64,000 bases of DNA, from assembly GCA_013115135.1 (NCBI GenBank), contig JABANP010000094.1, forward strand, positions 1 through 64,000. Reading direction: 5' to 3'. Source of the DNA: Perkinsus olseni (Eukaryota; Perkinsozoa; Perkinsida; Perkinsidae). The translations under genes were made by a program, and so were the position numbers. Numbering within the stretch: the stretch's first letter is position 1; each line of letters opens with the position of its first letter. The notes under the pieces are model-generated. The model did no database searches. It was given only the letters and a program-made list of their open reading frames with translations, and was not told the origin of the DNA. Shown piece by piece: positions 3,717-46,768 of this stretch.

Positions 3717-3738
3717 TCCAGTCAGACTGGACCAGTCT
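3717..3738. repeat. Inverted-octamer insertion, S=TCCAGTCT
   Basis: a-T-b'-T'-a'-T-b structure with T=CCAGTC, both 1-nt loops complementary to the flanking bases. Shared with unit 2 at 15,303-15,324. Confidence 0.9.
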
Positions 3739-3781
3739 GGAAGTTCCAGATACTATCTGAGATAGTGTGTGACACACTCTC

Positions 3782-3803
3782 TGTCCATGATGGACAGTCC
3801 ATC
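3782..3803. repeat. Inverted-octamer insertion, S=TGTCCATC
   Basis: Perfect structure with T=GTCCAT. Shared with unit 2 at 15,368-15,389. A decayed neighbour (3763-3784, two substitutions) overlaps it. Confidence 0.9.
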
Positions 3804-3956
3804 CTCGTCCACATCGTGAAGCTTTAATTAATCTGTGCTGCGACCAGTGCTAATTTCGTCGCCTGATTTGTGATATGAAAGTTCACTTTGCTGGATCTCG
3901 TTGAATTACTCTGAAGTTCGATTAGAACTGTTCGAGTGATAACCACCATAACTGGC

Positions 3957-3978
3957 CGACTCACTGAGTCGGACTCAG
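3957..3978. repeat. Inverted-octamer insertion, S=CGACTCAG
   Basis: Perfect structure with T=GACTCA. Shared with unit 2 at 15,542-15,563, so it is older than the duplication. Confidence 0.9.
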
Positions 3979-4966: not shown

Positions 4967-4988
4967 ATGCTTTAAAAGCATTGCTTTT
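4967..4988. repeat. Inverted-octamer insertion, S=ATGCTTTT
   Basis: Perfect structure with T=TGCTTT. Shared with unit 2 at 16,552-16,573. Confidence 0.9.
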
Positions 4989-5020
4989 TACGTATGAGCA
5001 CCCGCCTAGGATCGGCGCGT

Positions 5021-5039
5021 TGAGTTCAACTCAGAGTTG
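5021..5039. repeat. Inverted-heptamer insertion (12 bp), S=TGAGTTG
   Basis: Same geometry with a 5-nt core (GAGTT) and a 12-bp gain. Unit 1 only; the unexpanded TGAGTTG is at 16,606-16,612 in unit 2. Confidence 0.9.
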
Positions 5040-5042
5040 CAA

Positions 5043-5064
5043 GTCGCAGACTGCGACTCGCAGT
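5043..5064. repeat. Inverted-octamer insertion, S=GTCGCAGT
   Basis: Perfect structure with T=TCGCAG, 14-bp gain. Unit 1 only; the unexpanded octamer is at 16,616-16,623. It lies 4 bp from the previous event. Confidence 0.95.
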
Positions 5065-5603: not shown

Positions 5604-5625
5604 CTCAACGGCGTTGAGTCAACGC
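5604..5625. repeat. Inverted-octamer insertion, S=CTCAACGC
   Basis: Perfect structure with T=TCAACG, 14-bp gain. Unit 1 only; the unexpanded octamer is at 17,163-17,170 in unit 2. Confidence 0.95.
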
Positions 5626-5727
5626 CCAGTAGCTCACTAGGTCACTTTGTGAGACACAACGAGGGCTTGGAGTGTTGTGGATGGACGAGTCATCCATCCA
5701 TCCATCGGATGACTGGATGACTGGGTA

Positions 5728-6120: not shown

Positions 6121-6877
6121 TCTCACGCACAGAATCACTCTTTTGTAACGTGCTATAGAGGCCCGATCCTGTTACGGTGGTATTCCTTAGCGGTACCCTC
6201 AAGAAGATTTGATCCTTGATCTCCCTGGGTCTTAGGACAGTATTTAAATTGTCGACGGTGAGGATTGAACCCGGAACGTTTGCTTGTCCGACAGACGAGT
6301 TTTCCAGGTGCATGCTCAGCTGTGGTGAGGTATAAGGAGAAAGCGTCAGTGTCAATGACCTTCTTCGACACCAGCGGCTCGACTAGTGTCTTAGGCCCAT
6401 CGTGAGAGTTCCCGCTAGATCTAAGGCAGAGACCAGCGTGCGGCTCATTCTTCGGCGACTCGGATTTGTAATCCGCGATCAGACCGAAGTCAATGGAAAG
6501 TTTCCATTGGAAACCTCTGCAACATCGAAGGCGAATTTGCCTGTGTGGTCGAATAAAGTCACCTCTGAGCCATCAGTAAAAGACAGTTCGTAGGTGGAAC
6601 CTTTCACGCACGGCTCGGGTGTGCACTCATAACACCCGTACAGGATAGTCTCGCATCCACCAGGCACAAGGCCATTGAACCAATGCCTCCAGACCAAGAA
6701 GGTTTCTCGAGCACCAGTGTCTACCACCGCAGATACGTCTTGACCGTCAACCTTCAACTTAGCGACGAGGGCGTAGCTCAAACCCTCAAGCTCTCGTGAA
6801 ATATCAACCTTGATCACCGCGGCACCAACCAGGAATGACACGGCAGTGGCTGTCCACAGAAGATGGACGAATACCAT
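6104..6877 (-). pseudogene. Secreted aspartyl protease (pepsin family A1-like), unit 1, frameshifted
   Basis: Starts at 6877 with a hydrophobic signal peptide (residues about 1-20), then a pepsin-like N-lobe with the catalytic VVDTGARETF box (DTG, around residue 55) and a Cys-rich loop. In unit 2 the frame continues through a C-terminal part with an FSLYL segment typical of A1 proteases. Here a 14-bp inverted-octamer insertion (6493-6514) shifts the frame and ends the ORF at 6479. Downstream sequence to about 6104 still resembles the C-lobe in another frame. The family length is about 330-400 residues, so the second catalytic Asp region is not readable. Likely a secreted digestive or virulence-type protease gene that is dead in this unit. 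Confidence 0.75.
6493..6514. repeat. Inverted-octamer insertion in protease ORF, S=ATGGAAAC
   Basis: Perfect structure with T=TGGAAA, 14-bp gain, inside the aspartyl protease coding region. Unit 1 only; the unexpanded octamer is at 18,046-18,053 where the frame stays open. Confidence 0.95.
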
Positions 6878-7028: not shown

Positions 7029-7050
7029 CTCCTGGCCCAGGAGTCCTGGG
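7029..7050. repeat. Inverted-octamer insertion, S=CTCCTGGG
   Basis: Perfect structure with T=TCCTGG. Shared with unit 2 at 18,565-18,586. Confidence 0.9.
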
Positions 7051-7209: not shown

Positions 7210-7231
7210 GCTATGAGTCATAGCCTATGAC
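7210..7231. repeat. Inverted-octamer insertion, S=GCTATGAC
   Basis: Perfect structure with T=CTATGA. Shared with unit 2 at 18,746-18,767. Confidence 0.9.
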
Positions 7232-7477: not shown

Positions 7478-7499
7478 AGTCCACTGTGGACTGTCCACA
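7478..7499. repeat. Inverted-octamer insertion, S=AGTCCACA
   Basis: Perfect structure with T=GTCCAC. Shared with unit 2 at 19,013-19,034. Confidence 0.9.
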
Positions 7500-7612: not shown

Positions 7613-7919
7613 TGCACTATAGTGACAGCATAGTGACGCCTATAGTGTTAGCTATGTTACAGCTAGAGCCTGGTTTAACACTACTCAGCTATTAGACTAT
7701 CATCGCTACACTTACCTTCACTGCTGCTGCGTATCATTAGTCTCAGATAACCATCTGATCTTATTCTGCGCTTTGCACTAGCGTCAATGAGTATACGTGC
7801 TGTCCTAAGCTTAGCGTAGTAAGCTGTAGTGCACATCATCACTAAGCTTCTCTCGAGTCCAATCTTACCTTTCTTTGAGCCCCGTCTCAAATAGCCACAC
7901 TGTACCGAGTTATAGTGCA
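7613..7919. mobile_element. MITE-like element with 9-bp TIR and CATC target duplication
   Basis: A 307-bp segment begins TGCACTATA and ends TATAGTGCA, an exact 9-bp terminal inverted repeat. It is flanked by CATC at 7609-7612 and 7920-7923. Unit 2 has the empty site with a single CATC near 19,146-19,149. No ORF for a transposase lies inside, so it is non-autonomous. The superfamily is not assigned; a 4-bp duplication is unusual enough that a 5-bp reading (ACATC with a one-base-shorter end) should be kept open. Confidence 0.88.
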
Positions 7920-8012
7920 CATCGGGGACATGCACGTTTCTCATCCTCGGCTAGCGAACCAGTTTTGCGGTGATGGCTCAAATATCACTAGGCAGACTAG
8001 TGAAACTCAACA

Positions 8013-8462: not shown

Positions 8463-8484
8463 GCAGACAGTGTCTGCCAGGCAC
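8463..8484. repeat. Inverted-octamer insertion, S=GCAGACAC
   Basis: One substitution here; perfect in unit 2 at 19,687-19,708 with T=CAGACA. Confidence 0.88.
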
Positions 8485-8715: not shown

Positions 8716-8737
8716 CTTTTAACTGAAAAGTTTTCAG
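8716..8737. repeat. Inverted-octamer insertion, S=CTTTTCAG
   Basis: One substitution in the first arm, otherwise exact. Shared with unit 2 at 19,952-19,973. Confidence 0.8.
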
Positions 8738-9553
8738 GTGAGGAGCCTTGGCGAGTGGAATATCTCCTTCAGAAAATTGGCAATTTCTGTCGTGCCTCGA
8801 CCCGTGGCATCGGAGCAACTAGCTTTCTCTGATTAGTCTTGCGTAATGAAGATGTCATCATATCTATTATGCGTTTAAGCAAGGCTTATGTCCAGAACCA
8901 ACCTGCTGAGTCGGCTATTTATCTGTCTGTTCGCTGCGTCATCAACGTGAGATGATTGACGCTACCAAAGCTGCATCCGCGATGTGCCTCACATCATGTG
9001 AGAACGGCTCCCCGGGAACAGTAGTTTTGCTAATTATCGCCTTGGCGGCCCGGCTTGGCTGGACGCTCATTCGGATTAGTTGAACCACTCTTGAGCGAGT
9101 TCTTCGAGTCCGAGTGCTTCTGACCTCGCAATCTGACGAAGGATTGCGACACATGCCCTTCCCGAGTTCATTCCAGCTCTCCTTTTTCAAACTTCTAACT
9201 GGTTTCCCCTCCTGCAAAGCACTTAGTTCGACAGCATACATTCCTGTCGATTCTTTCTTATTGCCGATATTCTATGTTCGAACTTTCCCTTTAGACTCGT
9301 TCGGAAATTTTCGCTTCAACAGTATGCCACAGCCAGTACGGGTGAAGCCACCCAGGTCGGATTCGCAATTGATGTTCCCAACTGAGCCGCTCCTGCGAAG
9401 ATGTGTAACTCTCGACTCACTCAACAAGCATAGTATCGAGATGAGTTCGAATAGAATAAATGAGCAACGGTTTTCCCTCTAAGCAACTCGTTTTCTCAAG
9501 ACTTCACCAGCCGCTAAACGTTAAATGAAGAGAAGCTGGTCACTCTACTCTGT

Positions 9554-9575
9554 GAGGCTGGCAGCCTCAGGCTGC
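9554..9575. repeat. Inverted-octamer insertion, S=GAGGCTGC
   Basis: Perfect structure with T=AGGCTG. Shared with unit 2 at 20,794-20,815. Confidence 0.9.
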
Positions 9576-9728
9576 CCACCGCTGAGCAGAGGACAAGATA
9601 AAATGTTCATTCTACTCGGAGAGGCTTTCCGCCACTTAACATACGATGGAAGTGGAATATTCATGCTGTCTCAAAGACAATCATGAGAATCTCAAATAAA
9701 TGAAAGAATCGCCGGAGAAGTAGCTCCC

Positions 9729-11396
9729 TCACACCCCTGGGGTACCGCCGAGCAGCTGACCATCGATTCTACTGTCACCAAAGGCTATTTTAAAGAACCC
9801 ATGGTCACCCCAATCTTCATTCCAGGAGTTGGCAACTAGCCAGTAGCCTTCGCCATTCTCCTCGCCATACCCGATAATCTTCACAGCATGTCCACCGAGG
9901 AGAGAACCAGAAGTATGCTTATAGACACCGGACTTGTAGGCGAGGAAATCTTCATAAACGTCGAAAGCCGCAGACACCTGATTGACGGTCAATCATTCAC
10001 CCCAGATAGGAACGACAATAGATCTCTGCTCACCGGCCCATCAGTTGAAATGGCTTTCTTGGCGTCTTCAACACTCGAGTATTGGTGCGGGGACGACTCC
10101 ACCATGAAATGACGATCTCTGAGATCGATGATCATCATATATCTCCAAAGACTCCACGGCGAAGAGTCGCTCACTTCGGGCGACTTTCAAGTAGAGCGAC
10201 TCGCTTACTCTTTCACACTGGCTGGGTACTTTCCATTGTGGCATTGCTGAACACATTGAGGTGCGCTGTAGTCTTTCTAAGCTTGAAAAGAAATCATCGA
10301 CCCAGCAATGCCATCTCCCACTCACCTCCGGGCATGCTGGATATTTTGTGCTCTTAACATGATGAGCGCACGGGCGGAAGTCGTACGGCCAGCACCCATC
10401 AGCTTTGGTCATCTCACCCGTCTCAACGTAATCTCCGCCTGAGAAGGGTGGAGCCTACTCGAGATTGGCACGTGAAAGAATATACTCACCAGTTGCGATC
10501 CCTGCGTCATGCAACCACTTCCATGCAGCGCGCGGGTACCCACCACCGCAACCAAAGGACCTTAGGAGGAATACATCGTCAAAAACAGAGGGAAAAATAA
10601 GATCCCAGGTGTTAGACTGTCTTACGGTGCGCAGGCATTCATCTCCCCAGCCGAGAGTAGCGCTGTGAATTTCCCATCCGATTTGATACACAGACGATCG
10701 TTGAAGGCCTCAGTGGGGCCGAAGGCCCAGCAGCTGCCGCAGGCCGATTGGTCTCTGAAGGTGCAGTACACTCGCCGGAGGTAGCACCACCCGGTCCTGA
10801 ATCCCCACCTGATGTGGCCGATAACACCCGAGCACTTGGGGAATTCACTGCGTGCGTCGAAGTCGGTAGGGAGGTCCTTCAACTCCTCTGGGGCATAGAC
10901 CTTCTTAGTGAGTCCACTCGCGGCCTCGCGTAACGTCCCACATAACCTCTTAGCGTCACGAAGGCTGAAAGCTGAGGACAATTAGCTCAACGTCTCGGCA
11001 GGAGCTCCAACAGAGTTACTCTCGAATCTTCCTTGCTCGATGGATGCAGTCCACGTCTTCTGCTTGGAGTTGATCTCATCAACGAAGCTCTGCATAATAG
11101 CTGGTCTGGTCTCGTCGTATAGCTCGGCCACATCTTCTGTCGAGATGAACTCGGCCTGTGCCTTCAAGTCCTCCTCGAAGCGAGCGAGGTGCTGAGCTTC
11201 TTCCTCGGGAGTGTACACCAACCCTGAAGCCTCGAAGCCTTCAAGTTGAAGGGTAGATCAGCTACATAATGAAGCTTGGCGCACCTTTCTGAGCCTTGAG
11301 ATCCTCGAAAGTGCTCTTGAGATCCCATATAGCGAGGACTGAGGTACCGTAGAGAAGCCACAAGCCGATGCTAGTGGCGAATAGCTGGTGGACCAT
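9729..11396 (-). CDS. Cathepsin B-like cysteine protease (papain family C1A), unit 1
   Basis: A spliced gene starting at 11,396 with a signal peptide. A C1-type propeptide follows ([11 protein letters not shown] segment, typical of cathepsin B). The mature domain then begins LPTDFDAR. The catalytic Cys lies in [12 protein letters not shown], the cathepsin B-type GCGGGYP and HHV segments follow, and the last exon carries the active-site His (GGHAVKIIG) and Asn (NSWNEDWGD). Exons are separated by short introns, for example one just before DQSACGS and one before [11 protein letters not shown]. The first intron contains a 14-bp hairpin insertion (11,231-11,252) that unit 2 lacks. All catalytic residues are present, and reading frames appear continuous after splicing. 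The protein is probably lysosomal or secreted. Confidence 0.88.
11231..11252. repeat. Inverted-octamer insertion in cathepsin intron, S=CTTGAAGG
   Basis: T=TTGAAG with one substitution in the first copy; both loop bases fit. Unit 1 only. Unit 2 has a nearly identical unexpanded octamer at 22,557-22,564, and the alignment gap is exactly 14 bp. Confidence 0.88.
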
Positions 11397-19236: not shown

Positions 19237-19258
19237 AGCGGATCATCCGCTGCGGATG
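19237..19258. repeat. Inverted-octamer insertion, S=AGCGGATG
   Basis: Perfect structure with T=GCGGAT. The matching unit 1 copy (8013-8034) has two later substitutions. Confidence 0.9.
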
Positions 19259-20658
19259 TCTTGGGCCAGCCTAAGCCGACACCACTGCCCTATAACAGAA
19301 GTAGCCTTGCAATGCACTTCAGCTTGGCAGCCGATCCTCCGCCTAAGCATCCCGCTAGTCAAGACGGTCGGTATTGGTATCATGATGAGCCACACCTCCA
19401 ATACGTAGAGTGACGAGCCATGAAGTATGATACTCTGAGTATCGGCTCCGAGCCGACGGACCTCCAGCGACTCTTCGTACAGTTTCAGCCCGTACTAAGT
19501 TTTTTTCGTACTTTCCAGAGATTTCGTACAGATTGGGCCGCCCAATTTGGGCGATTTGTCGGCATCATTATTGCGCCAAAAGGATGCGAACAAGTCGCAA
19601 CTCCCGCAAGTTTCTCAATGATTGCTGCCAGGATAGATCCTGGTTCTACCGGTAGAAATTCGACCATAGACTCTACCTGGTAGATGGCAGACAGTGTCTG
19701 CCAGACACTACCGCTGTGAACCAAGATGACGTAGCCAAAATGCGAGACGAATTTGTAGCTTGTTACCTGGTATGCGCTATTTTCTGAGCCCTCTGGCTCC
19801 ACATCTCTGAGCGTGAGCCCCTTTTATTTGCAGAGGACGCGAGCTGGAAAGGTTTTCCGATGATAGTATGGGTGTAAGAATTTTACAGTAAAATTTACCG
19901 GCGGATGTTGGAGTCACAGTTGGACCCTCTTGCCTTCTGGATGCGCTATGGCTTTTAACTGAAAAGTTTTCAGGTGAGGAGCCTTGGCGAGTGGAATATC
20001 TCCTTCAGAAAATTGGCAATTTCTGTCGTGCCTCGACCCGTGGCATCGGAGCAACTAGCTTTCTCTGATTAGTCTTGCGTAATGAAGATGTCATCATATC
20101 TATTATGCGTTTAAGCAAGGCTTATGTCCAGAACCAACCTGCTGAGTCGGCTATTTATCTGTCTGTTCGCCGCGTCAGCAACTTGAGATGGTTGACGCTA
20201 CCAAAGCTGCATCCGCGATGTGCCTCACATCATGTGAAAACGGCTCCCCGGGAACAGTAGTTTTGCTAATTATCGCCTTGGCGGCCCGGCTTGGCTGGAC
20301 GCTCATTCGGATTAGTTGAACCACTCTTGAGCGAGTTCTTCGAGTCCGAGTGCTTCTGACCTCGCAATCTGACGAAGGATTGCGACACATGCCCTTCCCG
20401 AGTTCTCCTTTTTCAAACTTCTAACTGGTTTCCCCTCCTGCAAAGCACTTAGTTCGACAGCATACATTCCTGTCGATTCTTTCTTATTGCCGGTATTCTA
20501 TGTTCGAACTTTCCCTTTAGACTCGTTCGGAAATTTTCGCTTCAACAGTATGCCACAGCCAGTACGGGTGAAGCCACCCAGGTCGGATTCGCAATTGATG
20601 TTCCCAACTGAGCCGCTCCTGCGAAGATGTGTAACTCTCGACTCACTCAACAAGCGTA

Positions 20659-20680
20659 GTATCGACTCGATACTATCGAG
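20659..20680. repeat. Inverted-octamer insertion, S=GTATCGAG
   Basis: Perfect structure with T=TATCGA, 14-bp gain. Unit 2 only; the unexpanded octamer is at 9433-9440 in unit 1. Confidence 0.95.
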
Positions 20681-23058: not shown

Positions 23059-23080
23059 CTGTCGACTCGACAGTATCGAG
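23059..23080. repeat. Inverted-octamer insertion, S=CTGTCGAG
   Basis: T=TGTCGA, one substitution in the last copy, both loop bases fit. Third unit only. Confidence 0.8.
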
Positions 23081-23597: not shown

Positions 23598-23619
23598 AAT
23601 GAGAATCTCATTATGAGAT
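23598..23619. repeat. Inverted-octamer insertion, S=AATGAGAT
   Basis: Perfect structure with T=ATGAGA. Third unit only; the unexpanded octamer is at 11,899-11,906 in unit 2. Confidence 0.93.
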
Positions 23620-24896: not shown

Positions 24897-26330
24897 TTGC
24901 TAGGTCACTTTGTGAGACACAGCGAGGGCTCGGAGTGTTGTGGATGGACGAGTCATCCATCCATCCATCCAGGATATCCTGACGTCTTCTGTGAGGACGT
25001 CACTGCTGCTGAAGATGCCCCAGCTCTATGTGAACTGTGGAGGCCTTCATTCAATTGGCTCGCTGATGAGATGATCTACACTTACCCCATCGGTGATGAG
25101 GTAACAACGTCATGGTTCGACCCACTCATCGACTGGGCGATGATCAGTATGGCAGCCAACATGGACCATGGTCGAGTGTTGATGGAAAGGAAAGAGTTCA
25201 AGCACCAACTCCCTGTCAGCGTCGGCGCGTCAAGGGCTGCACCAAAGCATTGCTCTACACCTAGCGCCGACGACATCGAGTCTCCTACTCCTTCCGCCTA
25301 CAACTCTCCCCCCTCGAGCCACGATTGAACCGTGACGGACCGTCACTGACGGTTCGAAGGTCTCACAGTCGGCGACATCTTCATCGGGATCGGCCATCCA
25401 GGGTGAACCACTGTCCAGATTTGGACATTGTCCATCTGCAATTTTGCCGCAATTTGCGGCAAGAAAAATAATAGGCGAAAAATAGGAAAAATACGAAAAA
25501 TGCCAAAAAAAGCCTAAAATTTGAGCCTCGAGCGTACACAAGTGGGCCGAGTGCCTACAGGTCATCACCTTCGCCCGTAAGCGTGATTGACAGTTGTATC
25601 AACGACGGTAATACCGCTGCACACTTGTTTCCCTCACGGCAAGCCTTGCGATGCGAACCGATGCAAATTGCCATCGATCAGGTGGGCGCGCGCCAAGTTC
25701 ATGCGCTGCTCGACGAGTGCGATGCGTTGCATATGGTTCGGAAGTTGTTTATGCGGGCCACGGGTGCTCGTGATGCCCCGCGATAAGCGTAGCGTTGCCT
25801 GCTCCTTCCATGATCACCTGCATCGCACTAGTAGCACTCGGATCGTCTCGGTCGCCTCGACAGAGGCGACAGGAAAAGTTTTCGTATTTTACGGCTATTT
25901 TGCGCATTTTGCGAGTATTTTGCGCAAATTTCTTGCGGAAAAATATTTTTTTATTTTGCAGGACATTGGTGCACCCTGCGGCCATCCCATATGATGAGCT
26001 GAAGAAGAAGATCAAGTGCATCGTTGAAGACCCTCCTTCGGCCGACCACTTTCTCACAGGCTCTGACAACTATGTGCAGTGGCGGGTGACCATTCTTGAG
26101 ACCCTTGCCGATGCCGACGAGGCCCCTAACAAACTTCTGGCCGAGGCCGTCATTTCATGTCTAAAGGGTTCCTGGAACCCTTTAGACATGGCAGGAACCC
26201 GTTAGACATGGAACCCGGTTCCATCAAAGCATTCATCAAGCGCCAAGTCAGCCGTCAAAATATGGTTGACGATGGTGCAATGGCCGTCATAGCTGTCTTC
26301 AAGGGATATTAACGATCCGTACACTGAAAC
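24897..26330 (+). pseudogene. Broken gag-like ORF, probably retrotransposon-derived
   Basis: Open frames at 24,897-25,328, 25,583-25,786 and 25,980-26,205 read protein-like sequence, with an SDNYVQWR segment reminiscent of gag proteins of LTR retrotransposons. The family call is tentative. AT-rich stretches at 25,440-25,510 and 25,870-25,960 resemble each other in inverted orientation. The ORF is interrupted at 26,166-26,223 by a complex hairpin insertion, after which the coding sense resumes in another frame. No protease, integrase or RT follows. Confidence 0.45.
26166..26223. repeat. Complex hairpin insertion with restarted reverse run
   Basis: A 17-bp arm, a 1-nt loop (T at 26,173) and its exact reverse complement. 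Two further restarts at GGAACC follow (26,194 and 26,210), then a 1-nt turn and GGTTCC. Both turn bases complement the outer flanking bases, exactly as in the simple octamer events. Confidence 0.85.
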
Positions 26331-27651: not shown

Positions 27652-27673
27652 TCTCAGACTCTGAGACTCAGAG
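27652..27673. repeat. Inverted-octamer insertion, S=TCTCAGAG
   Basis: Perfect structure with T=CTCAGA, outside the tandem array. Confidence 0.92.
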
Positions 27674-27891: not shown

Positions 27892-28701
27892 TTAGGAGGA
27901 GGCATCATAGTCACTAGAATTTTCGACAGATCCGCCATCCATTGGAGCATCTGCTGTGACAAATTCGTCACCTGAAAGGGTCGGCCAAGGTGGCGTAGCC
28001 TCCCATGCATACTCCGAGTTCACGCCGCTCACTGTCTCAGCGTAAGTGGACATACCGTCAGCGCCTCGAGTGACAGCCTCGAAGACGTCCCCAGAGACAC
28101 CCCGCCGCCTCTTCGCCGATGAAAAAGCATCATTATATCTGTTTTCACTCCGAGGGAGGGTGATGTCCAAAGCCAGGCTGCTTGCTGTCATCGCATCAAC
28201 TATCTGAAACCACCATCACAGTTCTTTCAATTCCCAGCGACACCTACCCCTCCGGACGGGATAGTCAGGGCATTGGTCGGCAGAGTTCTCCGCGCTGTCA
28301 TGTGCTCCTGCACTTCGTGAGAAAGCAACGCACAGAGCAAATCGAGGGCCTGAGATGAATCCACAATCGCCTCGACTGTCGAGGCTCGACACCACCGTTT
28401 AAAGGGTCCCACCTGCTCTGTGTACTCCTCCACCCCGTGGCTCTTCAATGATCGCTCCACAAGCTCCCGTCGCTTGGACTCCGCAGTTTTCAGCGCCTGA
28501 GGCAAACTCGGCCGTGAAGGCCTTTCGAGAGACTACAGCTCCACCTGCCTTAGTGTTATTAATAATAGCCTTCAGGGAACCCGGCACAGAGACCAGCAAA
28601 TTGCCCCCTCCTCCACCGCCGTGGTAGCCATGATAGTGATGGGCGCCACTCGCTGCAGCCGCCGCTGCTGCAGCTGCCGCAGTGAGGTTCGATAATGACA
28701 T
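27892..28701 (-). CDS. Uncharacterised protein with poly-Ala and poly-Gly tracts
   Basis: Start at 28,701, then an Ala10 run, a His/Tyr/Gly stretch and a Gly6 run. A 40-nt intron (GTAGTC...CTCAG) joins to ALKTAESKRRELVERSL, a probable helical or coiled-coil segment. A 44-nt intron (28,204-28,247) then joins to IVDAMTASSLALDITL and an acidic C-terminus. No family is recognised. A perfect inverted-octamer insertion (28,370-28,391) lies in the second exon. Being 14 bp it would shift the frame, so part of this exon may be younger, or the model may be wrong there. It lies 138 bp downstream of the aminopeptidase stop on the same strand. Confidence 0.5.
28204..28247 (-). other. 44-nt intron with antisense tRNA-like string
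   Basis: GT...AG intron on the minus strand. It shares 14 of 15 bases (GTCGCTGGGAATYGA) with the unrelated DDX60 intron at 61,521. Confidence 0.6.
28370..28391. repeat. Inverted-octamer insertion, S=CCTCGACA
   Basis: Perfect structure with T=CTCGAC, in the second exon of the uncharacterised gene. Confidence 0.92.
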
Positions 28702-32803: not shown

Positions 32804-32825
32804 CTCTAACGGTTAGAGTCTAACC
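32804..32825. repeat. Inverted-octamer insertion, S=CTCTAACC
   Basis: Perfect structure with T=TCTAAC. Confidence 0.92.
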
Positions 32826-32883: not shown

Positions 32884-35663
32884 ATGGTCCATCGGCGCCT
32901 GGCTCTGGTGGCCGTCACCCTGCGAGGAATTGACACAGCATTGAGAAGTCCCTCAGTCAGTAAGAGCAAGCGAAGTGCACACTTCTCAGTCCGTCGAACA
33001 GGGTTGAATCAGATGAGTTGGATGACCCGACCTACCCCCCTGGACAAAACTGCCTCTTGCTGCCTGGATTCCCCACTCTTCGTGGTGATGCATGCAGCCT
33101 TCAGGACGAAGGGTGGATCCACGGATTCATCAAGCATAACGAGAAAGGGCAAGGGTGAGTTGGGCGGACTCGAATCTGACTGGAAGCTCCTACAGGTATT
33201 TCTACCTGGCCGCGAAGGCCGAGGATCGACCACCGGAGACTGCCCCTACTTTCATACAGATGTTCGGAGGTCCTGGGATTAGTTCAGTTGGTGGCGCATT
33301 GACATCGACTGCCCCCTGCTATGTTTCCGAGAGTGGAGAATCTCTCGTCACCAATCAGTAGGGCGAAGGGATCGCCCGAATCAGATTCATCCAGTAGGTA
33401 TTCGTGGACGAAGAACGCGAATGGGATATGGATAGATGCCCCTGGCGGTGTTGGACTCAGCGACGAGCTCAATGATGACACTATTTCTGAATACGTCCAG
33501 CGGATGTGAGACCTGCTCCGCTGGTTATATGATATTCCGCATTTGATGTACGGTAGTCTCCTCATATATAGCTTCACACGGCTTCTAGTTGATGGTTGCC
33601 AAGTGTTCTGAACGCTGTGTTGCGCCCGTCCGACACCTGGGCTGAGCCTTGGCCGCCAAGGCTTGGCGTCATTTGCTCTCGTAGGACTCTCACCATCGAA
33701 GGCATACTCAAGAGGCACCCCTACCTGGGGAAGGAACTATACGTTATCGGACATTCTTTCGACAGTAGGAGGCAAGCCAGTACTCGATTCTTGTCTCCAC
33801 GCTTGGAATGTCCGTATGAGCGCACGACGACCTCACAGGCGGTCAACGCCCGAGTTCAGGTTCAATCGCAATTCTGGTAGCTTCCCAGCTGATGGAGCTG
33901 TCCTTACCAGTGAAGGGCGTTTACAGTGTTGACGGATTGAATGGACCAGCTCAAAGGTGGCGGACCTCCGCGGCCCGTAGGCGCTGGAAACGTCCACGCG
34001 CAGGTGCAGCGGGTATTTAGAGGTAGCGACTCGTCGAAGCCTGGTGGAAGACCCTGAGTAAGGCCGAGACTGGTGCAGTCGAGAACTTCCAACCGACAGT
34101 CGGTTGGAAGTCGGTTACCGACTCATTCAGAATTCGGGAAATGAAGCAAGCGCTCGAAAGCTGTCGTGCCAAGCTTGAAGAGTGTCAGACGAACTGGGAG
34201 TTTGACAGCGGTAAGAACGGATCGCCCGAAGCCAAGCTGGGTTGAAGTAAGGTCATTCCCCCAGGTGCGTGTAAGAGTATCCAAGCACTGTGGTCGGAAG
34301 TGTTTCTGAATCCCGTTAAGGACAACTTTGTGTCGTTGTCAAACTTGAGGAGGGATGAGATGCAAGCATCTTCAGGTACGATATGAGGACTGTACCGGCA
34401 GGCGAATGCTTCTTCTTCAAATTTCACCCCGGCGATGTAGTCTGATAACGTCGATTCGCGCTAACTGTTCTGCCACGACGCTTACCAGTTGGAGAGTGGG
34501 CTTGCTCAGCACACCGTGCAGCACGGTCCGCGCTGGGTGTTCTTCCCTCTTGTTCATTCATCGCCAACCTGCATTTGACAGCGCTGTTGCTGCGCTTAAC
34601 TGAAAGCTGTCGTGCATCAAAGTAGCACCGTTTGGATTTGATCAGGTTGAGGTCTTCCTCAACCAGAAATCAATCCGAGAGCAACTTGGCGTTTCCAGGG
34701 AATTCAAGGCTCTCAACAAGCAGGTGGTGTACTCGGGAGCGATCTGACCTCACGAGCCAATGGGCAATCATCCCAGGTTCTTTACAAGTACACACAGCCC
34801 GATACGACTCCTGCTTTGGTGTCTTTGCTCGATGCAGGGCTGAAGGTGAGCACTCAGTCAACCACAGTCCCTCTTTGATTCAAATACCATTTAATACACA
34901 CCATGCTTTCATGAAACCTTCTAACGCGTCTCATACCGGCAAAAGCCTCCCACAGAGGAGCCCAAATGCCTTGAACACATCCTCAGTGGCCCCTGTCATC
35001 TGAACTGAACTACTTTTCCCAATCGGAAGCTCCAATGAAAATAAGATCATTGTAAAACTTTCTGGTACCTTTTCAGGTCCTAATTGCTGTTGGGTCCGAG
35101 GACTACATAGTGAATACGAACTCCACTCTGATGTGGATGAGGACACTCAGGGGAGAGTATAACTACAGTACTGTCGTCCTGCAACAAGCAACAACGTTGA
35201 AGGTATGGAATGGGCTTGTTGGCTGACGGCAGCTCAGATTCAAAATATGCGGTGTGACGATTTCCATCGCCGAACACTCTCCGTCGCATTGACGAAGACA
35301 GCGTAATTTTCCGTTCAGACGTCCAGGGACGAAACCGTAGGGGATGTGCGGAAGGATATTTTCGACAACAGAGCGAAGCTCGCATTTATCGAGGTGAATG
35401 GCTCTCTCACGCTGAGCCCCCAAAAGTCCCCAGAATCTTTTTGACCTGGATTTGTCTCCATTCCGCGCCACCACTCTGTCTGGCCCGGGGACAGCCAAGC
35501 GTGAACGATAAACTTACCGAGCAACTTACTTCAGATAACAGAAGCCGGTCACATGCCATACATGAACAAGCCCGCTGAGATGGAGTGGCTCCTCGGAGCC
35601 TTCATAGATGGGAACCTCTGGTCAGGCGATGCAGGGTTAAAGCAGACAAGGCCCCATAGTTGA
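32884..35663 (+). CDS. Serine carboxypeptidase-like protein (peptidase S10), possibly damaged
   Basis: ATG at 32,884, a short hydrophobic N-terminus, then a 42-nt intron (32,960-33,001) and a 41-nt intron (33,155-33,195). Exons encode GWIHGFIKHN, then FYLAAKAEDRPPETAP and the S10 oxyanion motif MFGGPGISSVGG, then NANGIWIDAPGGVGLSDE. The nucleophile region reads ELYVIGHSF near 33,745 in place of the usual GESYGG, and the frame changes right after it. The C-terminal half has a VEVFLNQKSIREQLGV segment, then an intron to VLIAVGSEDYIVN (catalytic Asp) and AGHMPYMNKPAEMEWLL (catalytic His), ending at 35,663. All three triad regions are findable. The break after the nucleophile Ser may be an intron or a lesion. 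Confidence 0.75.
34091..34123. repeat. Complex hairpin insertion inside S10 gene
   Basis: 12-bp arms around a 1-nt loop at 34,098. The reverse run restarts at GTCGGT (34,110), then turns at 34,116 into ACCGAC. Both turn bases complement the outer flanks. Confidence 0.82.
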
Positions 35664-36313: not shown

Positions 36314-36335
36314 TCCGCGTTACGCGGACCGCGTA
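36314..36335. repeat. Inverted-octamer insertion, S=TCCGCGTA
   Basis: Perfect structure with T=CCGCGT. Confidence 0.92.
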
Positions 36336-36606: not shown

Positions 36607-36617
36607 AAGACTGCCGG

Positions 36618-36815
36618 TCACGACCGGTCCAGCTCAGCTAGATCAAATGCACCATATCGCCAGCCCCCGAGAACTTCATGATAGTACCCGTTTCTTTCCA
36701 CCGCACTGATGACTGCCTCTCGACAGGCTTCAAATAAGGGCAACTGAGACGGTGAGGCAGCCGATAATGACAGACTTAGAAGCACAACACTCACAGCAAG
36801 ATGATATGAAACCAC
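36618..36815 (-). CDS. Small predicted secreted protein
   Basis: A 65-residue ORF with a clear signal peptide (LAVSVVLLSLSLSAASP) and a short mature part with one Cys. A related but broken sequence lies downstream of the second ARF gene (near 37,960-38,060), including the same start region. The ARF and small-ORF pair therefore seems to have been duplicated together. No family is recognised. It could be the first exon of a longer gene. Confidence 0.4.
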   Translation of the reverse strand: MVSYHLAVSVVLLSLSLSAASPSQLPLFEACREAVISAVERNGYYHEVLGGWRYGAFDLAELDRS

Positions 36816-36985
36816 CTCATCTAATGAGGGCGTTAATGAAGGTCATTGAGAAGAGGGTAGTGCAGGGTATTGACTGGACTTGAAAGAATTTTGAAATAGT
36901 GCTCCCACCGGGCCGTGAGCCTTCGCATCTGCCCGCACAAGGTTCCCACATGCTCCCACTAAGAAGGAGCACTGAAAATTAGGAC

Positions 36986-37869: not shown

Positions 37870-38166
37870 CGAGAAAAGTCAACGACACTTTAAGAGGACA
37901 GTTCGTAACTTAGTAGTTTGTACCAGTACTTCATCCCACTTGACTTCGCCGATGCTGGGCTGTCGCTGAGCTTCAAATGAAGGGAAACTAACACGGTCGG
38001 GCAGCTGATAATGACAGACTTCGTCGCACAACAGCCGGGAAAATGATATGAAACCACCTCATTAAAAACAGCGTATTGCTGAGTACTGATTGGATTCGAA
38101 AAATGTTGCAATAAAGCGCTCCCACCGAGCGGTGAGTATCTCCCCATGCAAATTTCCATCATGCTA

Positions 38167-39026
<860 letters not shown>

Positions 39027-39191
39027 CCACGACCAGCAAAAGAAGAGGAAGTCTACAACAACACGGACCAAAATTCGTCAAATTCGTCGCGAATTCGAAA
39101 ACACTAGCGCTCGCCCGGCGCAATGTTTGACGATCATCGTCGAAAATTTTTACGAGTCCATTTGCCTTCTACCAGCCCCTTCTTTTTTAAC

Positions 39192-41123: not shown

Positions 41124-42743
41124 GTCATCACCGATGGCGGTTGGCCATGCTTTTCTCTGGCAGGCACTGGCGTCTTAATTCCATCACTATGATGATTGCG
41201 TTGGAACACCTCGATGCATTCTATGGGACTAGCTATTCGCATAGAGCAACGGTCACTGAGTTGTGATGGAAGATGAACTTGTGTTCACGAGTCGAGGGAA
41301 CTGCTCGCGGGGGCCGCGATGCCGTGGATCTCAGCGACTATCAAGGATAGTAAAGCCAGCCTAGCAAGCGTCGATGGATAAATTAACCACATCATTGCTG
41401 TGCTTTCGAGGGTGCACTTGCTCGGTGCCAAAAGCATAGGAGACGAAACGATGGAATGAGTGCGGTGCGAACTTATTCACGGACCAGTGCACGACAAGCC
41501 ACCATGCGACAGGAGCAATAGGCCGCCAAAAACACCAAAAAATTTTGAGGAATTATGAAATGGTGTTGTGGTGTTGGTTGTTGAAGTTTGACGCCGAAAA
41601 GAAGGACAAGCCGAAATGGAGCCGCTGTGCCAAGCAGGGTTATTACAGCGGTCGAACAATTGAAAAAATGGTAGACGGAGTACCGAGTGCTGTCTCGAAT
41701 CTCGGCTGCTGTCACGAGGCATGGTGGATGCCTCATTTTCGCATGGTGGATTTTACCGTTACACACTCCTACTCAACGCGATAGTGAATTATGAGCTAAC
41801 GCAACTGACACGATCGGAGAGAAAATTTGCAGCCCGGGACCGCTGAGAAATGCGAACCTTTCCCGTATAACTGCGTCAAGCCGCAATGCTGCGATGGAAC
41901 CGCACCGAATAGCGACGATTACATCATAGAATCAAACCAGAGTTCTCTGCACGGTTGCCGTAGCGGTCAGTACTAAGATTGTTTCACAAGGTTTAAGAGA
42001 ATCCTAAGGAGCTCCCAGATTAAAGGCGTACTTAAGTGGGACCTGAAATCGCAACTGAGAGAGCAAACTCAGTAATTTTCTGGTGTATGGCGGGGAGGAA
42101 TGTGTCTGTTCAATAGACTCTGTTGAATATTATGGACGGTTTGGTTGAGTGGTCATGGTTTGGAGTTTCGACGGGCTTGATTGCAGTACGATCCTGGCGA
42201 TTATCAGTATTGAAGTGATTAATCTACACGCGCGAGAAGTTCTGGCAGAACTGTCCTGCCAGTTTGATGCCGTTGGACTTCGTAAGTTAGAATGCGCTTC
42301 AAGCTGGGCCCCCCACCGCGAGGGACACTCGTAACCACCAGTGGTTGTTCACCACACTGTCAGTGAGAACAATAATAGGATATTTTGTATGTCACCCGCT
42401 CGCTCCACTAGAAGAACGCAAGACAAACTCGATGGCGATAAGGCTTTCCTTCCGCAAAACCTAGTAGTGCTGCTGGTACTGCTATTACTGAGACCCACAT
42501 GGCAAATGAAATTATACCACTACATCCGTAGTGAAAAGATAAGACTAGTTCATCTTCATGATACACACCCTTAACCTTCCCGTAGGGTGCAAAGCCCTTC
42601 TGAGTAATAAATAATACATAATTGAAGCGAAGGCACCAAGTGGTCATGCGAGGCACCGGCAATCAGAGAGAATCGTGGATTTACACCACCACCAGCTCAA
42701 CGAGGCGACGACATTTATATTATAGTTCGATCAATGCGGCCAA
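41124..42743. other. Intergenic region
   Basis: No convincing gene. A 79-codon ORF at 41,545-41,784 has no recognisable family. The stretch 42,447-42,743 is the 3' flank of the AP2-like gene, shared with 50,380-50,690. Contains one octamer insertion (42,238). Confidence 0.5.
42238..42259. repeat. Inverted-octamer insertion, S=AGTTCTGC
   Basis: T=GTTCTG with one substitution in the last copy; both loop bases fit. Confidence 0.82.
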
Positions 42744-43997
42744 TCAGCTGTGCATAATCGGCATGATAGTTTCCTGGTTATCAGCACCCCCTGTGGGAAG
42801 AGGAGGCATTAGATCACCATCATTGTGGATCTGACTTGATGGTGATGGAGCTTCTGCGACCTGTCTACGAGGACCCTGATGGTGGGGATAGACACGATCC
42901 CTAAGGGTCTTAACGAAAGCCCTCATGCCAGGAGCGTCCACTACGTGACGATACTTCATCATCTCAGCTCTATCACAGGTAGCATCAGCAACCTCCTGTC
43001 GGAGTGGGCCATATACCTCTCTACCACTTACTCTAACACTTGCTCTGAAACCCTTATGCATTCGTCTGACACCAATAGGGGCCGCGTAGTCCAACTTCTT
43101 CGGCTTTTTGATTAATAGCGTGGAAGGATGCCGATCGGTGACATGCTTCATTTGCTCGAGAAGCTTCATCACTTCCGGCTTAGTCATACCACTCTCAACA
43201 CGCAGTCGATGAACCTCCTTCTGGTCTTCAACACACTGATGGACAGTCTCACGATACGGTCCAGTAGCCTGACGACCACCATTCCTCAGTATTGTCACCC
43301 AACCGTGAGCTCGGCGAACAACCCTAACCGGGCCGTTTGCATCATCAGTTGTGATATTCAAAGCGCCTGCGAGCTTACTAGACCCGACGTGGCCTCTCGG
43401 GCGAGTACGCCCGATGGTGGGTGTGAAAACATTTGCAGCCGAAGACGACTGACTACCACTGCCAAGTGCAATGGACGAAAACAACGTCGGTTCCAAAACC
43501 AAAGGCGGGCCGGTCAAGGTTGAGGCCCTATGAGAATCGTACCCTGACAGTACACTGGGGAACTGTGAGGTCATCGAAGAGGGAGGGGGCCGCGTTTCAG
43601 ACGGAGGATAGACACCATTGCCAGGGCGCAGACCATCGGATGAAAGAAGCCTTGCCAGTAGCGTCGAGCCATCATGGATCACCGGCAAGACGCTTCCGCG
43701 AGCGGCATCGTTGGACTGAAGCTGGTCACCAAAAGCCTCATGTTTGAAATCCTCGGAGTCGCCAACCTTCAACCTCTTCGTTGATCGTTCAAGAGGCGAG
43801 TCGTAGCCGGGGCCTCCCAAAGCAGCATGAAGGCTGAAAGCCTCAAGGTCGCTGCCGGTCATGTGAAGGGCCCCGGGAACAACCGACGAAGTCGTTCCGG
43901 GCACGGGGATAACGCAGCCCGACTGAGATTGACCACATTGCAATCCGGTGCCCTCATTGCGGCCGCTGTCGGAGTTTGTGTTGAAAGACACGTACAT
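42744..43997 (-). CDS. AP2/ERF-like DNA-binding protein, paralogue 1
   Basis: 417 residues from the Met at 43,997, the start matching paralogue 3 (M-Y/F-x-SFNTNSDSG). The upstream in-frame Met at 44,042 is less likely. The N-terminal half is Ser/Pro/Gly-rich with an STKRLKVGDSEDF basic patch. The C-terminal half has two AP2-like repeats: NGPVRVVRRAHGWVTILRNGGRQATGPYRE...VEDQ and IGVRRMHKGFRASVRVSGREVYGPLRQEVADATCDRAEMMKYR. The three-strand plus helix pattern, with GVRR and the YGPLR/A-x-x-DRA segment, fits AP2. Such proteins are transcription factors in alveolates, but transposon-linked homing versions also exist. Family call is by pattern. Confidence 0.65.
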   Translation of the reverse strand: MYVSFNTNSDSGRNEGTGLQCGQSQSGCVIPVPGTTSSVVPGALHMTGSDLEAFSLHAALGGPGYDSPLERSTKRLKVGDSEDFKHEAFGDQLQSNDAARGSVLPVIHDGSTLLARLLSSDGLRPGNGVYPPSETRPPPSSMTSQFPSVLSGYDSHRASTLTGPPLVLEPTLFSSIALGSGSQSSSAANVFTPTIGRTRPRGHVGSSKLAGALNITTDDANGPVRVVRRAHGWVTILRNGGRQATGPYRETVHQCVEDQKEVHRLRVESGMTKPEVMKLLEQMKHVTDRHPSTLLIKKPKKLDYAAPIGVRRMHKGFRASVRVSGREVYGPLRQEVADATCDRAEMMKYRHVVDAPGMRAFVKTLRDRVYPHHQGPRRQVAEAPSPSSQIHNDGDLMPPLPTGGADNQETIMPIMHS

Positions 43998-44594
43998 GCT
44001 TGTGTGTGCACGTGTGAACGCGAACTCGCGCGCAGGCGTCACGCCTTACTCTGTAGAGGAGACGCAAGATTGCAAGCTTAGGACAGGTGCTAAGCTCCGC
44101 TAGATCGACTACTCTTTCATGGTAGTGATCGACGAGATTGAAATTTTTCGGGAGTAGATAAGTTTTTCGCTCCCGCACGACGAAGACGATGTTTCATTGT
44201 GCAATTAGCCATTGGAGCATCTTCCTCACAAATGAAGCTAGTGCAGACCTTCGAGCTAATCGCTTGAAGCGATACTGGTGATTAATGTATGATGTTGGTT
44301 GTCTCGCACTCACCACACTCGGGCTGATTCTTGCGCGCTTCCCAACCCGATCCCTCGATGTAGAGGTAGGACTAGCGTTTGTCTTCAACGATACTTCATG
44401 GTGAATCTGCAGAGAGACTTTGATTGTGTTCGTTGTTTGAAACTCTCAGTGAGCTGCTCTTGTATTACAGGCTGTTGTGAACAGTCTGGGACACATGGAC
44501 CACTCTAGTTGTTTGCTGTGGGCAGTGCCACACGGTTTGTCCTAGCCACCTCGGCATATATCGGATGATATATTATACCATGATATATTGAAGT

Positions 44595-45068
44595 TGCACC
44601 CGTGTTGTGTAAAACGCGGGTGTTTCACGCGTTACGAAAAACACAACGCGTTATGAGCATGAATTTAGAGTATAACGCGTAAAACGCGTAATGGGCTCAA
44701 AACGCGATATGTATAAGGCGTGATGATAACGCCAAGAGTAATGTTGAGCGCTGAACATGAAACACAACCGGAAGGTTTCTACGCAAGAGAAACTATCAAG
44801 TCACGCGAGTGCGCTGAGCTGTGTTTAAGTTAGTGACGGATTCGGCAGTGGAAGAATAAATGCGAACCGCGGCAACGCGTTGTGTTATACGCGTTTTTCT
44901 ACCGCGGTAACGCGTAGTACGCGTTATAACGCGTTATGGCGTTGCCGTTTTACGCGTTATGGCGTTAAACGCGCGCGTTATACCGCGAAGTGGTATCACT
45001 ACACAACACATCGCGTTTTACGCGTGAAACACTTCGCGTAAAACAGTTTCACGCGTTTTACGGGTGCA
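44595..45068. mobile_element. ACGCGT-studded inverted-repeat element (474 bp)
   Basis: Begins TGCACCCGT and ends ACGGGTGCA, a perfect 9-bp terminal inverted repeat. Inside are twelve ACGCGT words, mostly in the context TAACGCGTTA or its variants, plus extra CGCGTTTTACGCG-like strings in both orientations. It is otherwise AT-leaning with no ORF. The layout (TIR plus many subterminal motif copies) fits a MITE with transposase-binding repeats. ACGCGT is also the MCB cell-cycle box in yeasts, so a regulatory role is possible. No target duplication is obvious. Confidence 0.75.
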
Positions 45069-46746
45069 TCTCCATTGATGTATATGGATATATGTATCAT
45101 ATCCATCTATTCCTCTACGTCATTGGAAATCTCCTAGCTTCGTAAGTATGCGTGTTTGTCTGACGAGGTTCTGTCGACAGATCGCATAGCTTTGGTGACT
45201 GTGTTGCCTTGGATACTATCTATACTTTTCCTCGCCTCTTAGTTGTAGTACATCTTTGAGTCGGGCTCGTTGTGTAAGAACTCCTAAAAACAGTGGTCCA
45301 GCAGTTTATCTTGACTCTAGATTCCTGATTTGGTCATGGGTCCCATGGCCAACTCAGGAATCTAGACATGACCTGGGGTCCATGACCCGGACTCGACATG
45401 AAAACGATGGGGAACTCCAGTAGTTCGCGGTAGTTCAGTGGCTGATCTCAATCAGTCAACGCGCGCGGTCTCTCTGTGCGAGATACACCCGTTTTAGATT
45501 TGTACATCCAACAGCGGCAGCGAATTAATTCAGTTCAGATGTTCTCAGGCGGAGAACCGACAGCTTTGGACTGAGTTATGCCGTGCATACTGGATGCGAT
45601 GTTCTCCTGATCCGAAGCTGAACAGTGACACCACGCCGCAGCCAACGGGCTCGGGGACAACTGAATGCGTGAAGTTTCCGAAGGAACGACCCGCTGAGTG
45701 AGATTTGATGGTTCGTAAACCTCACCCACCTCAGATTTCCTAAATTCATAGGCAGGGCCTGACTGAAGCCCCCCCCCCTCGCCTCTCGGCCGACACTACA
45801 CCATCAATGAGGCTTTCGGGTAGAGGGATAAGGCTAACTCACGAACCTCGGAGACGAGCTTCCGAGTGAATATCATCCCAACGTTCTCTCGAAGAAGCGA
45901 TGAGGGTTTCATGATTCGACCATTCCCGACCTAGAGGTGTAATGACAATTTCCCGCGCATGCAGCCTACTAACGATTCTACGTCGAATGAGCTGGTAGCT
46001 CTCATTATCAGAGTGGCGACCTGGATTTAGCTTTATGATATGCGTAACGGGCAGCCTGCAACAGTCAGACACCAAAATCCGTTACTGAGTTCGAGAACTG
46101 AACCCACCACCATCGGAATCTATTTCCCGGAAATCATTCCCGCATTTCGCCGAAATGAGGCTTGCTTCGGGCGTGCTGGCGAAATTGATTGTCCTACTGA
46201 CTCGTCTCGTCGGAACTGGTTTCACTGGCGAAACTGATTTTATGTCCAGTTTAGACATGAAAGGCTGTCTGAGACAGCCAGCCCCCTCCGCCGACAAGTT
46301 GAGGGCCTCGAAGATGGCCTTCAGATTCCCGTACGGCAACTTAAAAACCTTGTAATTCCCGCACCAACGACGATTACCTCGGACCTGAGACACCATTAGT
46401 AACCGCTAATAAGGGTGGTCCGGGACGTCTCTCGATAGCATCGCACGATCGGCCAGGCTCAGTCGGCCGCCCTTGGAAACTCATGTCGACTGCCACTGGT
46501 AACAGCTGGAGAAAACAGTCGTTTCCAGTGGTGGGAGCGAGCCAAGTCGCTCATAACGAATGCGCTGAACAGCGTCGTCAGAACGGACTAAATATTAATT
46601 CGGCCACAGAAGAGGTCCCTCATGGCAATGGAACGTTATGGCCGTGAAACTTTGACTAGAAGGGATGGACGAGGAAAAGAGAATACTGGAAATATGACGG
46701 GAGCTAGCCAGACAGGCCCTATGCCCCATGGGGTATGACGCGGTAT

Positions 46747-46768
46747 ACCTCAGACTGAGGTCCTCAGT
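46747..46768. repeat. Inverted-octamer insertion, S=ACCTCAGT
   Basis: Perfect structure with T=CCTCAG. Confidence 0.92.

What the first reader, a model, noticed from the sequence alone, without database searches (positions are those of the whole stretch)
3717..46768. Uniform 14-bp self-inverted insertions making overlapping 1-nt-loop hairpins (about 25 sites)
At about 25 sites an octamer aTb has become a-T-b'-T'-a'-T-b, where ' is complement/reverse complement. The gain is exactly 14 bp (12 bp in one case with a 5-nt core). Fourteen bases per site are fully determined by the octamer, and 18 or so sites fit without a single mismatch; random expectation in 64 kb is far below one. Seven sites (5021, 5043, 5604, 6493, 11231, 20659, 23598) are present in one tandem unit and unexpanded in another, so they are insertions and not selected structures. 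Octamers share no obvious sequence. Others: 3717, 3782, 3957, 4967, 7029, 7210, 7478, 8463, 8716, 9554, 19237, 23059, 27652, 28370, 32804, 36314, 42238, 46747. The fixed 8-nt size suggests a double template switch with a set footprint, or repair of a 6-nt staggered break using an inverted copy of the site. I know of no described class with this exact geometry.
Basis: seen in the sequence. Interest (0 to 1): 0.96.

Follow-up and report, generated by a model that had tools for sequence, protein, structure and literature searches.

The report
Uniform scars of departed jumping genes
This genome, probably that of a Perkinsus parasite, carries every few thousand bases a self-inverted 14-base insertion of one fixed pattern, likely the scar left when a hAT-type jumping gene cut itself out and the cell would have rejoined the two hairpin-capped ends through their duplicated 8-base target, so the genome would hold a readable record of past jumps.

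Summary
The window holds 32 perfect 22-bp sites a-T6-b'-T6'-a'-T6-b (23 distinct loci). A 325-kb sample holds 113 perfect sites against 0.0 expected, none at unit sizes 9-12, 4 at size 7. Empty paralogues carry the single octamer; decayed and shared copies speak against an artefact. The fixed size fits the 8-bp target duplication (TSD) of hAT transposons. hAT excision leaves hairpins on the flanking DNA, and its footprints are palindromes centred on the complement of the base next to each transposon end; here the centres are exactly b' and a'. If the opened tails are aligned on their TSD copies, every tail pair long enough gives the same 22 bp. Support: hAT transposases, hAT elements and a 580-bp MITE with 8-bp TSDs (one copy in the window), octamer bias towards the hAT target nTnnnnAn, rarer P-nucleotide footprints with the same 8-bp relation, no Merlin match. 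Against: no site seen empty, filled and scarred; the classic 16-bp hAT footprint is not in excess; the source family is unidentified. The near-uniform product and its density are what is new to me.

The parts
3717..3738 (.). perfect 22-bp scar; same scar in the tandem copy at 15303-15324
3747..3765 (.). perfect 19-bp scar with 7-bp unit (5-nt core); tandem copy at 15333-15351
3782..3803 (.). perfect 22-bp scar; tandem copy 15368-15389
3957..3978 (.). perfect 22-bp scar; tandem copy 15542-15563
4967..4988 (.). perfect 22-bp scar; tandem copy 16552-16573
5021..5039 (.). perfect 19-bp scar (7-bp unit), absent from the tandem copy
5043..5064 (.). perfect 22-bp scar, empty in the tandem copy (single octamer)
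5604..5625 (.). perfect 22-bp scar, empty in two paralogous copies (about 17164 and 24881)
6493..6514 (.). perfect 22-bp scar, empty in the tandem copy
7029..7050 (.). perfect 22-bp scar; tandem copy 18565-18586
7210..7231 (.). perfect 22-bp scar; tandem copy 18746-18767
7478..7499 (.). perfect 22-bp scar; tandem copy 19013-19034
8463..8484 (.). scar one substitution from perfect; its perfect partner is 19687-19708
8716..8737 (.). scar one substitution from perfect; same string at 19952
9554..9575 (.). perfect 22-bp scar; tandem copy 20794-20815
9980..10001 (.). scar one substitution from perfect; +14 against the other unit in a diverged stretch
11231..11252 (.). scar one substitution from perfect; +14 against the other unit in a diverged stretch
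19237..19258 (.). perfect 22-bp scar; decayed partner in the first unit
19687..19708 (.). perfect 22-bp scar; decayed partner at 8463
19906..19925 (.). other footprint at an 8-bp target, TGTTGGA-G-TC-AC-A-GTTGGAC (two P-nucleotides each side, +12); unit 1 has the single octamer TGTTGGAC
20659..20680 (.). perfect 22-bp scar, empty in the first unit
23059..23080 (.). scar one substitution from perfect
23598..23619 (.). perfect 22-bp scar, empty in two paralogous copies
25391..25398 (.). left 8-bp target-site duplication CGGCCATC
25399..25978 (+). 580-bp non-autonomous element with hAT-like ends CAGGGTGMACCA; 11 near-full-length matches genome-wide at 92-100% identity, the window copy included
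25979..25986 (.). right 8-bp target-site duplication CGGCCATC
27652..27673 (.). perfect 22-bp scar
28370..28391 (.). perfect 22-bp scar
32804..32825 (.). perfect 22-bp scar
34091..34123 (.). long two-hairpin footprint with the same 8-bp relation (palindrome arms 13 and 7)
36314..36335 (.). perfect 22-bp scar
42238..42259 (.). scar one substitution from perfect
46747..46768 (.). perfect 22-bp scar; last perfect one in the window

Best explanation
Each 22-bp site is likely the excision footprint of a hAT-type DNA transposon that would have inserted in the octamer aTb and duplicated it (8-bp TSD). On excision the transposase would join flank base 7 to the complement of base 8 on the left, and mirror-wise on the right, capping both flanks with hairpins. 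Opened at a distance from the tip, the left flank would end ...aT-b'-T'a' and the right flank's other strand ...b'T'-a-Tb. These two 3' tails are complementary through the TSD copies (b'T'a' with aTb), so annealing, trimming and filling would give aT-b'-T'a'-Tb: 22 bp, gain 14. Left tail p and right tail q give this same string whenever p+q is at least 6 within the TSD and the tails are aligned on their full homology, so the size is set by the TSD and not by an enzyme's reach. Shown: the geometry and its excess, empty octamers, differing ages, target bias, resident hAT elements with 8-bp TSDs, and other P-nucleotide footprints with the same 8-bp relation. Inferred: that a hAT element sat in each site, the hairpin opening, and the annealing step.
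For: Size: 113 perfect at unit 8 vs 0.0 expected; 0 at 9-12. Palindrome centres are the complements of the first and last octamer base (32 of 32); a blunt-hairpin product (24 bp) occurs 0 times in the sample. [quoted passage not shown] Target bias in 100 distinct octamers: T at 2 in 43 (p=2.6e-5), A at 7 in 36 (p=0.0096), both in 17 vs 5 expected (p=8.6e-6); Hermes prefers nTnnnnAn (PMC10368747, passages). C/G at the octamer ends is favoured in scars (67 and 68 of 100) and in the TSDs of resident elements (20 of 22 ends; p=1.4e-4). Two-hairpin footprints with the 8-bp relation and spacing 8-20 nt: 9, vs 0 in 3 resamples; one with spacing 5 is polymorphic between tandem units (19906-19925). Genome: 21 hAT dimerisation-domain matches; a 581-aa frame with DUF4371 + Dimer_Tnp_hAT; hAT elements with 8-bp TSDs in L025 and L027; 580-bp MITE with a perfect 8-bp TSD in 9 of 10 copies examined, 7/8 in the tenth. 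Merlin transposase: 0 matches. At C727 a resident MITE abuts two nested scars (28 bp = 2x14), absent from three paralogues. Density 32 in 60.8 kb near hAT genes vs 49 in 190 kb of other slices.
Against: No site was found in all three states (empty, transposon, scar). For 7 of 10 MITE sites a paralogue without the MITE was read; none carries a scar there (one search scored 39 of 79 candidates and cut its list). Queries from 11 scar sites showed no transposon-filled paralogue (40 of 382 candidates scored). Two paralogues of the L027 element's flanks were uninformative. The classic 16-bp hAT product aTb'a'Tb is not in excess (6 vs 5), unlike the mixed footprints known elsewhere. T2/A7 in 11 resident TSDs is 6 of 22, too few to differ from either background or the scars, so the source family is not identified. 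The L027 TSD unit is itself repeated in tandem on its right side, which weakens that TSD. Four perfect sites have a 7-bp unit.
Confidence: 0.87

Rival explanations
1. Short double template switch during replication: the polymerase switches strand after T, copies 8 nt back, and switches again.
For: The string can be written as one such event at every site. Small excesses at units 5, 6 and 7 exist (17 vs 7.0, 2 vs 0.3, 4 vs 0.1).
Against: Described template switches vary in size: in apes the copied piece has median 12, MAD 4.5, max 128 (PMC7954356, passages). Here unit 8 has 113 and units 9-12 have 0. It does not predict a transposon-like target bias or P-nucleotide footprints with the same 8-bp relation.
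Confidence: 0.05
2. Excision scars of another transposon superfamily with 8-bp TSDs (Merlin, P or an undescribed one), or cutting by a domesticated hAT transposase like Kat1 of Kluyveromyces.
For: 8-9-bp TSDs are shared with Merlin, which is reported from P. marinus (PMC8101967, passages); Kat1 makes hairpin-capped breaks (PMC4763223, passages).
Against: 0 Merlin transposase matches; the resident 8-bp-TSD elements found have hAT-like ends, two of them with hAT domains. The 1-nt offset fits hAT. P elements were not searched. A domesticated enzyme would need a TSD-flanked substrate at thousands of sites (inference).
Confidence: 0.06
3. Assembly, library or read artefact (fold-back).
For: Fold-back artefacts can make self-inverted insertions in principle (recalled).
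Against: Nine perfect scars are shared by tandem units 97.8% identical over the first 7.6 kb and 93% over the next 2.5 kb; sites with 1 and 2 violated constraints number 49 and 79 vs 0.1 and 1.0 expected, so they age; empty and filled paralogues coexist; a target bias is not expected of an artefact.
Confidence: 0.01

Closest known systems
Ac/Ds excision footprints in yeast, Candida and plants
   Same: 8-bp TSD, palindromic P-nucleotide insertions centred on the complement of the base next to each transposon end, frequent microhomology at the join (PMC5873905, passages and Discussion).
   Different: There footprints are many: 28 types in 128 C. albicans revertants, longest P insertion 3 nt; in yeast arms up to 20 nt. 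Here one product dominates: 105 of 131 eight-bp-unit footprints; of the 26 others, 17 have spacing 1-5, where about 7 are expected by chance.
Hermes (house fly hAT)
   Same: Hairpins on flanking DNA (stated in PMC4763223) and nTnnnnAn 8-bp targets (PMC10368747).
   Different: Transposase and ends here were not aligned with Hermes; the target bias is weak.
mPing (Tourist/Harbinger) excision repair by TSD-derived microhomology
   Same: The TSD copies guide the repair (PMC4561436, abstract).
   Different: There the site is restored precisely; no inverted copy is left.
Short-range template switches
   Same: Self-templated inverted insertion.
   Different: Variable size (PMC7954356, passages); no TSD relation.
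DNA-transposon excisions in rice
   Same: Genome comparison of excision scars.
   Different: Of 94 excisions 8 were perfect; deletions and filler of varied size predominate; 0 hAT excisions in its table (PMC4423477, passages).

Membership tests
hAT excision footprint | Unit equals the 8-bp TSD of hAT elements | tested here: met
   113 perfect at 8, 0 at 9-12, 4 at 7; hAT-like MITE TSD 8 bp in 9 of 10 copies, 7/8 in the tenth
hAT excision footprint | Palindromes centred on the complement of the base bordering each transposon end | tested here: met
   32 of 32 six-nt-core matches in the window; blunt-hairpin alternative 0
hAT excision footprint | hAT transposases in the genome | tested here: met
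   21 PF05699 matches, 6 PF14291 matches of which 4 are over the cut-off, two-domain frame
hAT excision footprint | Target preference nTnnnnAn | tested here: met
   T2 43/100, A7 36/100, both 17/100; weak. 11 resident TSDs: 6 of 22, not decisive
hAT excision footprint | Same site seen with the transposon and with the scar | tested here: inconclusive
   7 of 10 MITE sites had a readable paralogue, none scarred at the site; 11 scar sites searched, no filled paralogue among the listed matches
hAT excision footprint | Spectrum of P-nucleotide lengths including the classic short forms | tested here: inconclusive
   9 footprints with spacing 8-20 and one polymorphic short one, but the classic 16-bp form is not in excess, 6 vs 5
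hAT excision footprint | Hairpin intermediates | not testable with these tools
   inferred from the product
Merlin excision | IS1595-type transposase | tested here: not met
   0 matches
Replication template switch | Variable copied length without target bias | tested here: not met

The most novel reading that the evidence does not exclude
This lineage repairs transposon-made hairpin ends almost deterministically: long hairpin tails are annealed through the duplicated target and give one scar type, on the order of ten thousand times (extrapolated), so an ordinary assembly becomes a datable census of transposon departures. It would be a distinct way of closing hairpin-capped breaks, different from the heterogeneous end joining reported in yeast and plants.
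Probability: 0.5. Interest if true: 0.75.

Novelty: new variant of a known kind. Interest (0 to 1): 0.64.

Why it matters
When a DNA transposon leaves, repair is usually messy and the record hard to read. A single-form, self-verifying 22-bp scar can be found without a comparison genome, its original octamer read off, and its age judged by decay. If the reading holds, excision rate, target choice and repair fidelity become measurable from one assembly. It would also support the flanking-hairpin model of hAT excision in an alveolate, and it poses a clear question: why repair is so uniform here. Each scar adds 14 bp, which shifts a reading frame.

Tried and rejected
Absence of Ku-type end joining as the reason for the uniform product: one weak Ku match over the cut-off was found (C523, 28.3 bits), so absence is not supported. 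TIR-plus-TSD scans of the sample gave mostly pairs without hAT ends; only L025, L027 and the window MITE were kept because of their ends. A pattern search with the L027-type end gave 164 matches vs 89 for the reversed control, too few to explain the scars by that family. Three-state sites were looked for from both sides without success. Of 176 single 1-nt-loop palindromes outside perfect doubles, 37 have 5 or more of 7 third-arm matches and are read as decayed doubles; the rest are unexplained in part. The 311-bp gap between tandem units at 7613 was looked at as a source element: it is a different repeat, with a target repeat of about 4-5 bp. Depletion from long open frames (6 of 113 in stop-free frames of 200+ codons that cover 21.6% of the sample) is not used as evidence, because a scar itself breaks a frame.
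Full report
What is in the sequence. A scan for a-Tk-b'-Tk'-a'-Tk-b over core lengths 3-12 gives, in the 64-kb window, 32 matches at k=6, all 32 with both outer bases complementary as the pattern demands; 3 full matches (of 4) at k=5; none at 7-12. Nine loci are present in both copies of an ~11.5-kb tandem unit, leaving 23 distinct loci. The window lies in a 61.5-Mb, 968-contig genome. An open frame in the window is 66% identical to a Perkinsus marinus M1 protease, so a Perkinsus species is likely; this rests on one protein.

More than chance. I used 41 loci, 324,835 bases: the window, 19 ten-kb slices from contig starts plus one slice of the window's own contig (L004-L023), and 20 neighbourhoods of hAT matches (L024-L043). 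L001-L003 were left out as copies of the window. Perfect sites by unit n: n=5 17 (expected 7.0), n=6 2 (0.3), n=7 4 (0.1), n=8 113 (0.0), n=9-12 0; with one violated constraint n=8 gives 49 (0.1), with two 79 (1.0), with three 84 (12.9) (10 first-order Markov resamples). Palindromes with arm 7 or more and a 1-nt loop number 396, against 25-48 for each loop size 0 and 2-12. Density: 49 in 190 kb for the 19 slices, 32 in 60.8 kb near hAT genes, 0 in the 10-kb slice L023, and in the window 27 in the first 28 kb and 5 in the other 36 kb. Extrapolation from the 19 slices gives some 16,000 perfect scars in the genome; this is an inference, and contig starts may be repeat-rich.

They are events, of differing age. 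Where paralogues exist in the sample, empty copies have the single octamer and 14 bp less: window 5043, 5604 (two copies), 6493, 20659, 23598 (two copies), and sites in L018, L024, L036, L039, L040 and L042. Other scars are shared, intact or mutated, by both duplicates. Shared, decayed and polymorphic states together speak strongly against a read or assembly artefact; raw reads were not available.

Why hAT. (1) The unit is 8 bp, the TSD of hAT elements. (2) The palindrome centres are the complements of the last and first octamer base. [quoted passage not shown] passages, Discussion), and Hermes leaves hairpins on the flanking DNA (as stated in PMC4763223, passages). A blunt-hairpin version (24 bp) is absent, 0 in the sample. 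(3) The octamers are not random: of 100 distinct, T at position 2 in 43 (control 0.236, p=2.6e-5), A at 7 in 36 (p=0.0096), both in 17 (control 0.050, p=8.6e-6), C or G at the ends in 67 and 68. Hermes prefers nTnnnnAn (PMC10368747, passages). TSD ends of 11 resident elements are C or G in 20 of 22 (p=1.4e-4), the same end bias. (4) If the scar is a hAT footprint, other P-nucleotide lengths with the same 8-bp relation should exist. One search lists 131 such footprints after low-complexity rows were dropped: 105 canonical, 9 with loop spacing 8-20 (0 in three resamples), and 17 with spacing 1-5, against 7 per resample (21 in three, not filtered for low complexity). One of the short ones, window 19906-19925, is an insertion relative to the other tandem unit, where the octamer is single. 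(5) The genome has hAT transposases: 21 matches to the dimerisation domain, 6 to DUF4371 (4 over the cut-off), one 581-aa frame with both. Elements with hAT-like ends, a hAT domain and 8-bp TSDs lie in L025 and L027; the L027 TSD unit is tandemly repeated at its right side. The window itself holds a 580-bp non-autonomous element (25399-25978) with 8-bp TSDs; 11 near-full-length matches including itself at 92-100%; of 10 copies examined 9 have a perfect 8-bp TSD and the tenth 7 of 8. For 7 of 10 sites a paralogue without the element was read; the octamer is single and exact in 5 and differs by substitutions in 2. (6) Merlin, another 8-9-bp-TSD superfamily reported from P. marinus (PMC8101967, passages), gives 0 matches. 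(7) At C727 a resident MITE abuts two nested scars; three paralogues lack the MITE and the 28 bp, which is 2x14.

Why always 22 bp. Let the left hairpin give p P-nucleotides and the right q. In one search (40 of 117 rows printed) every listed pair with p+q minus overlap equal to 6 is the same 22-bp string; in general any p+q of at least 6 within the TSD, aligned on its full homology, gives it. So no fixed nick position is needed; it is enough that tails are long and joined by their homology. Tails longer than the TSD joined elsewhere would give the rare long footprints. Joins without homology, such as the 16-bp aTb'a'Tb, are not in excess (6 vs 5). This step is inferred. In yeast palindrome arms reach 20 nt and 88-89% of footprints show microhomology, by PMC5873905's account, so both ingredients are known; their near-exclusive use is what differs.

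What speaks against or is missing. No three-state site was found; those searches scored only part of the candidates (39 of 79, 40 of 382). T2/A7 in 11 resident TSDs is 6 of 22, which cannot be told from background or from the scars, so the main source family is unknown. Four perfect 7-bp-unit sites and roughly a hundred single 1-nt-loop palindromes beyond background are not fully explained. Ku is weakly matched, so loss of end joining is not the reason on present evidence.

Literature. Searches over open-licence papers listed nothing whose title or abstract start describes this uniform footprint or hAT excision scars in Perkinsus; only listings were seen except where stated. Papers not held, including the yeast and Arabidopsis footprint studies (one looked up and not held), could hold the 22-bp product as a minor class.

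Verdict. A real feature, spread through the sampled genome; most likely a known kind of event (hAT excision footprint) in a new, strikingly uniform variant.

Noticed in passing
window 12541-13446 and 13901-15049: Reverse transcriptase and a sub-threshold tyrosine-recombinase (Phage_integrase) match in neighbouring frames of the tandem unit, suggesting a DIRS-like retrotransposon.
   Followed up: no
window about 7613-7923: A ~303-311-bp insertion in tandem unit 1, absent from unit 2, with ends TGCACTATA and a 4-5-bp target repeat; 48 matches listed genome-wide (40 of 325 candidates scored), several in ~1.38-kb tandem arrays.
   Followed up: partly
G000 C601, C713, C380, C825, C650 and others: A tandem satellite with many of the 324 matches, into one monomer of which (C4) the MITE inserted; spacings of about 280-580 bp.
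   Followed up: no
sample L004-L043 and window: Roughly a hundred single 1-nt-loop palindromes with arms of 7 or more beyond background and without a third arm; perhaps one-sided footprints.
   Followed up: partly
window 3747, 5021, 15333 and L016 near 8018: Same geometry with a 7-bp unit (+12); may reflect a second TSD length.
   Followed up: partly
G000 C788 about 8743-9732 and C14 about 29301-30285: Two MITE copies are split at the same place with a 5-bp overlap, suggesting a nested element with another TSD length.
   Followed up: no
L006 6370-6587, minus strand: RNase MRP RNA gene.
   Followed up: no
window 36727-39027: Imperfect direct repeats about 1.2 kb apart, 75-86% identical.
   Followed up: no
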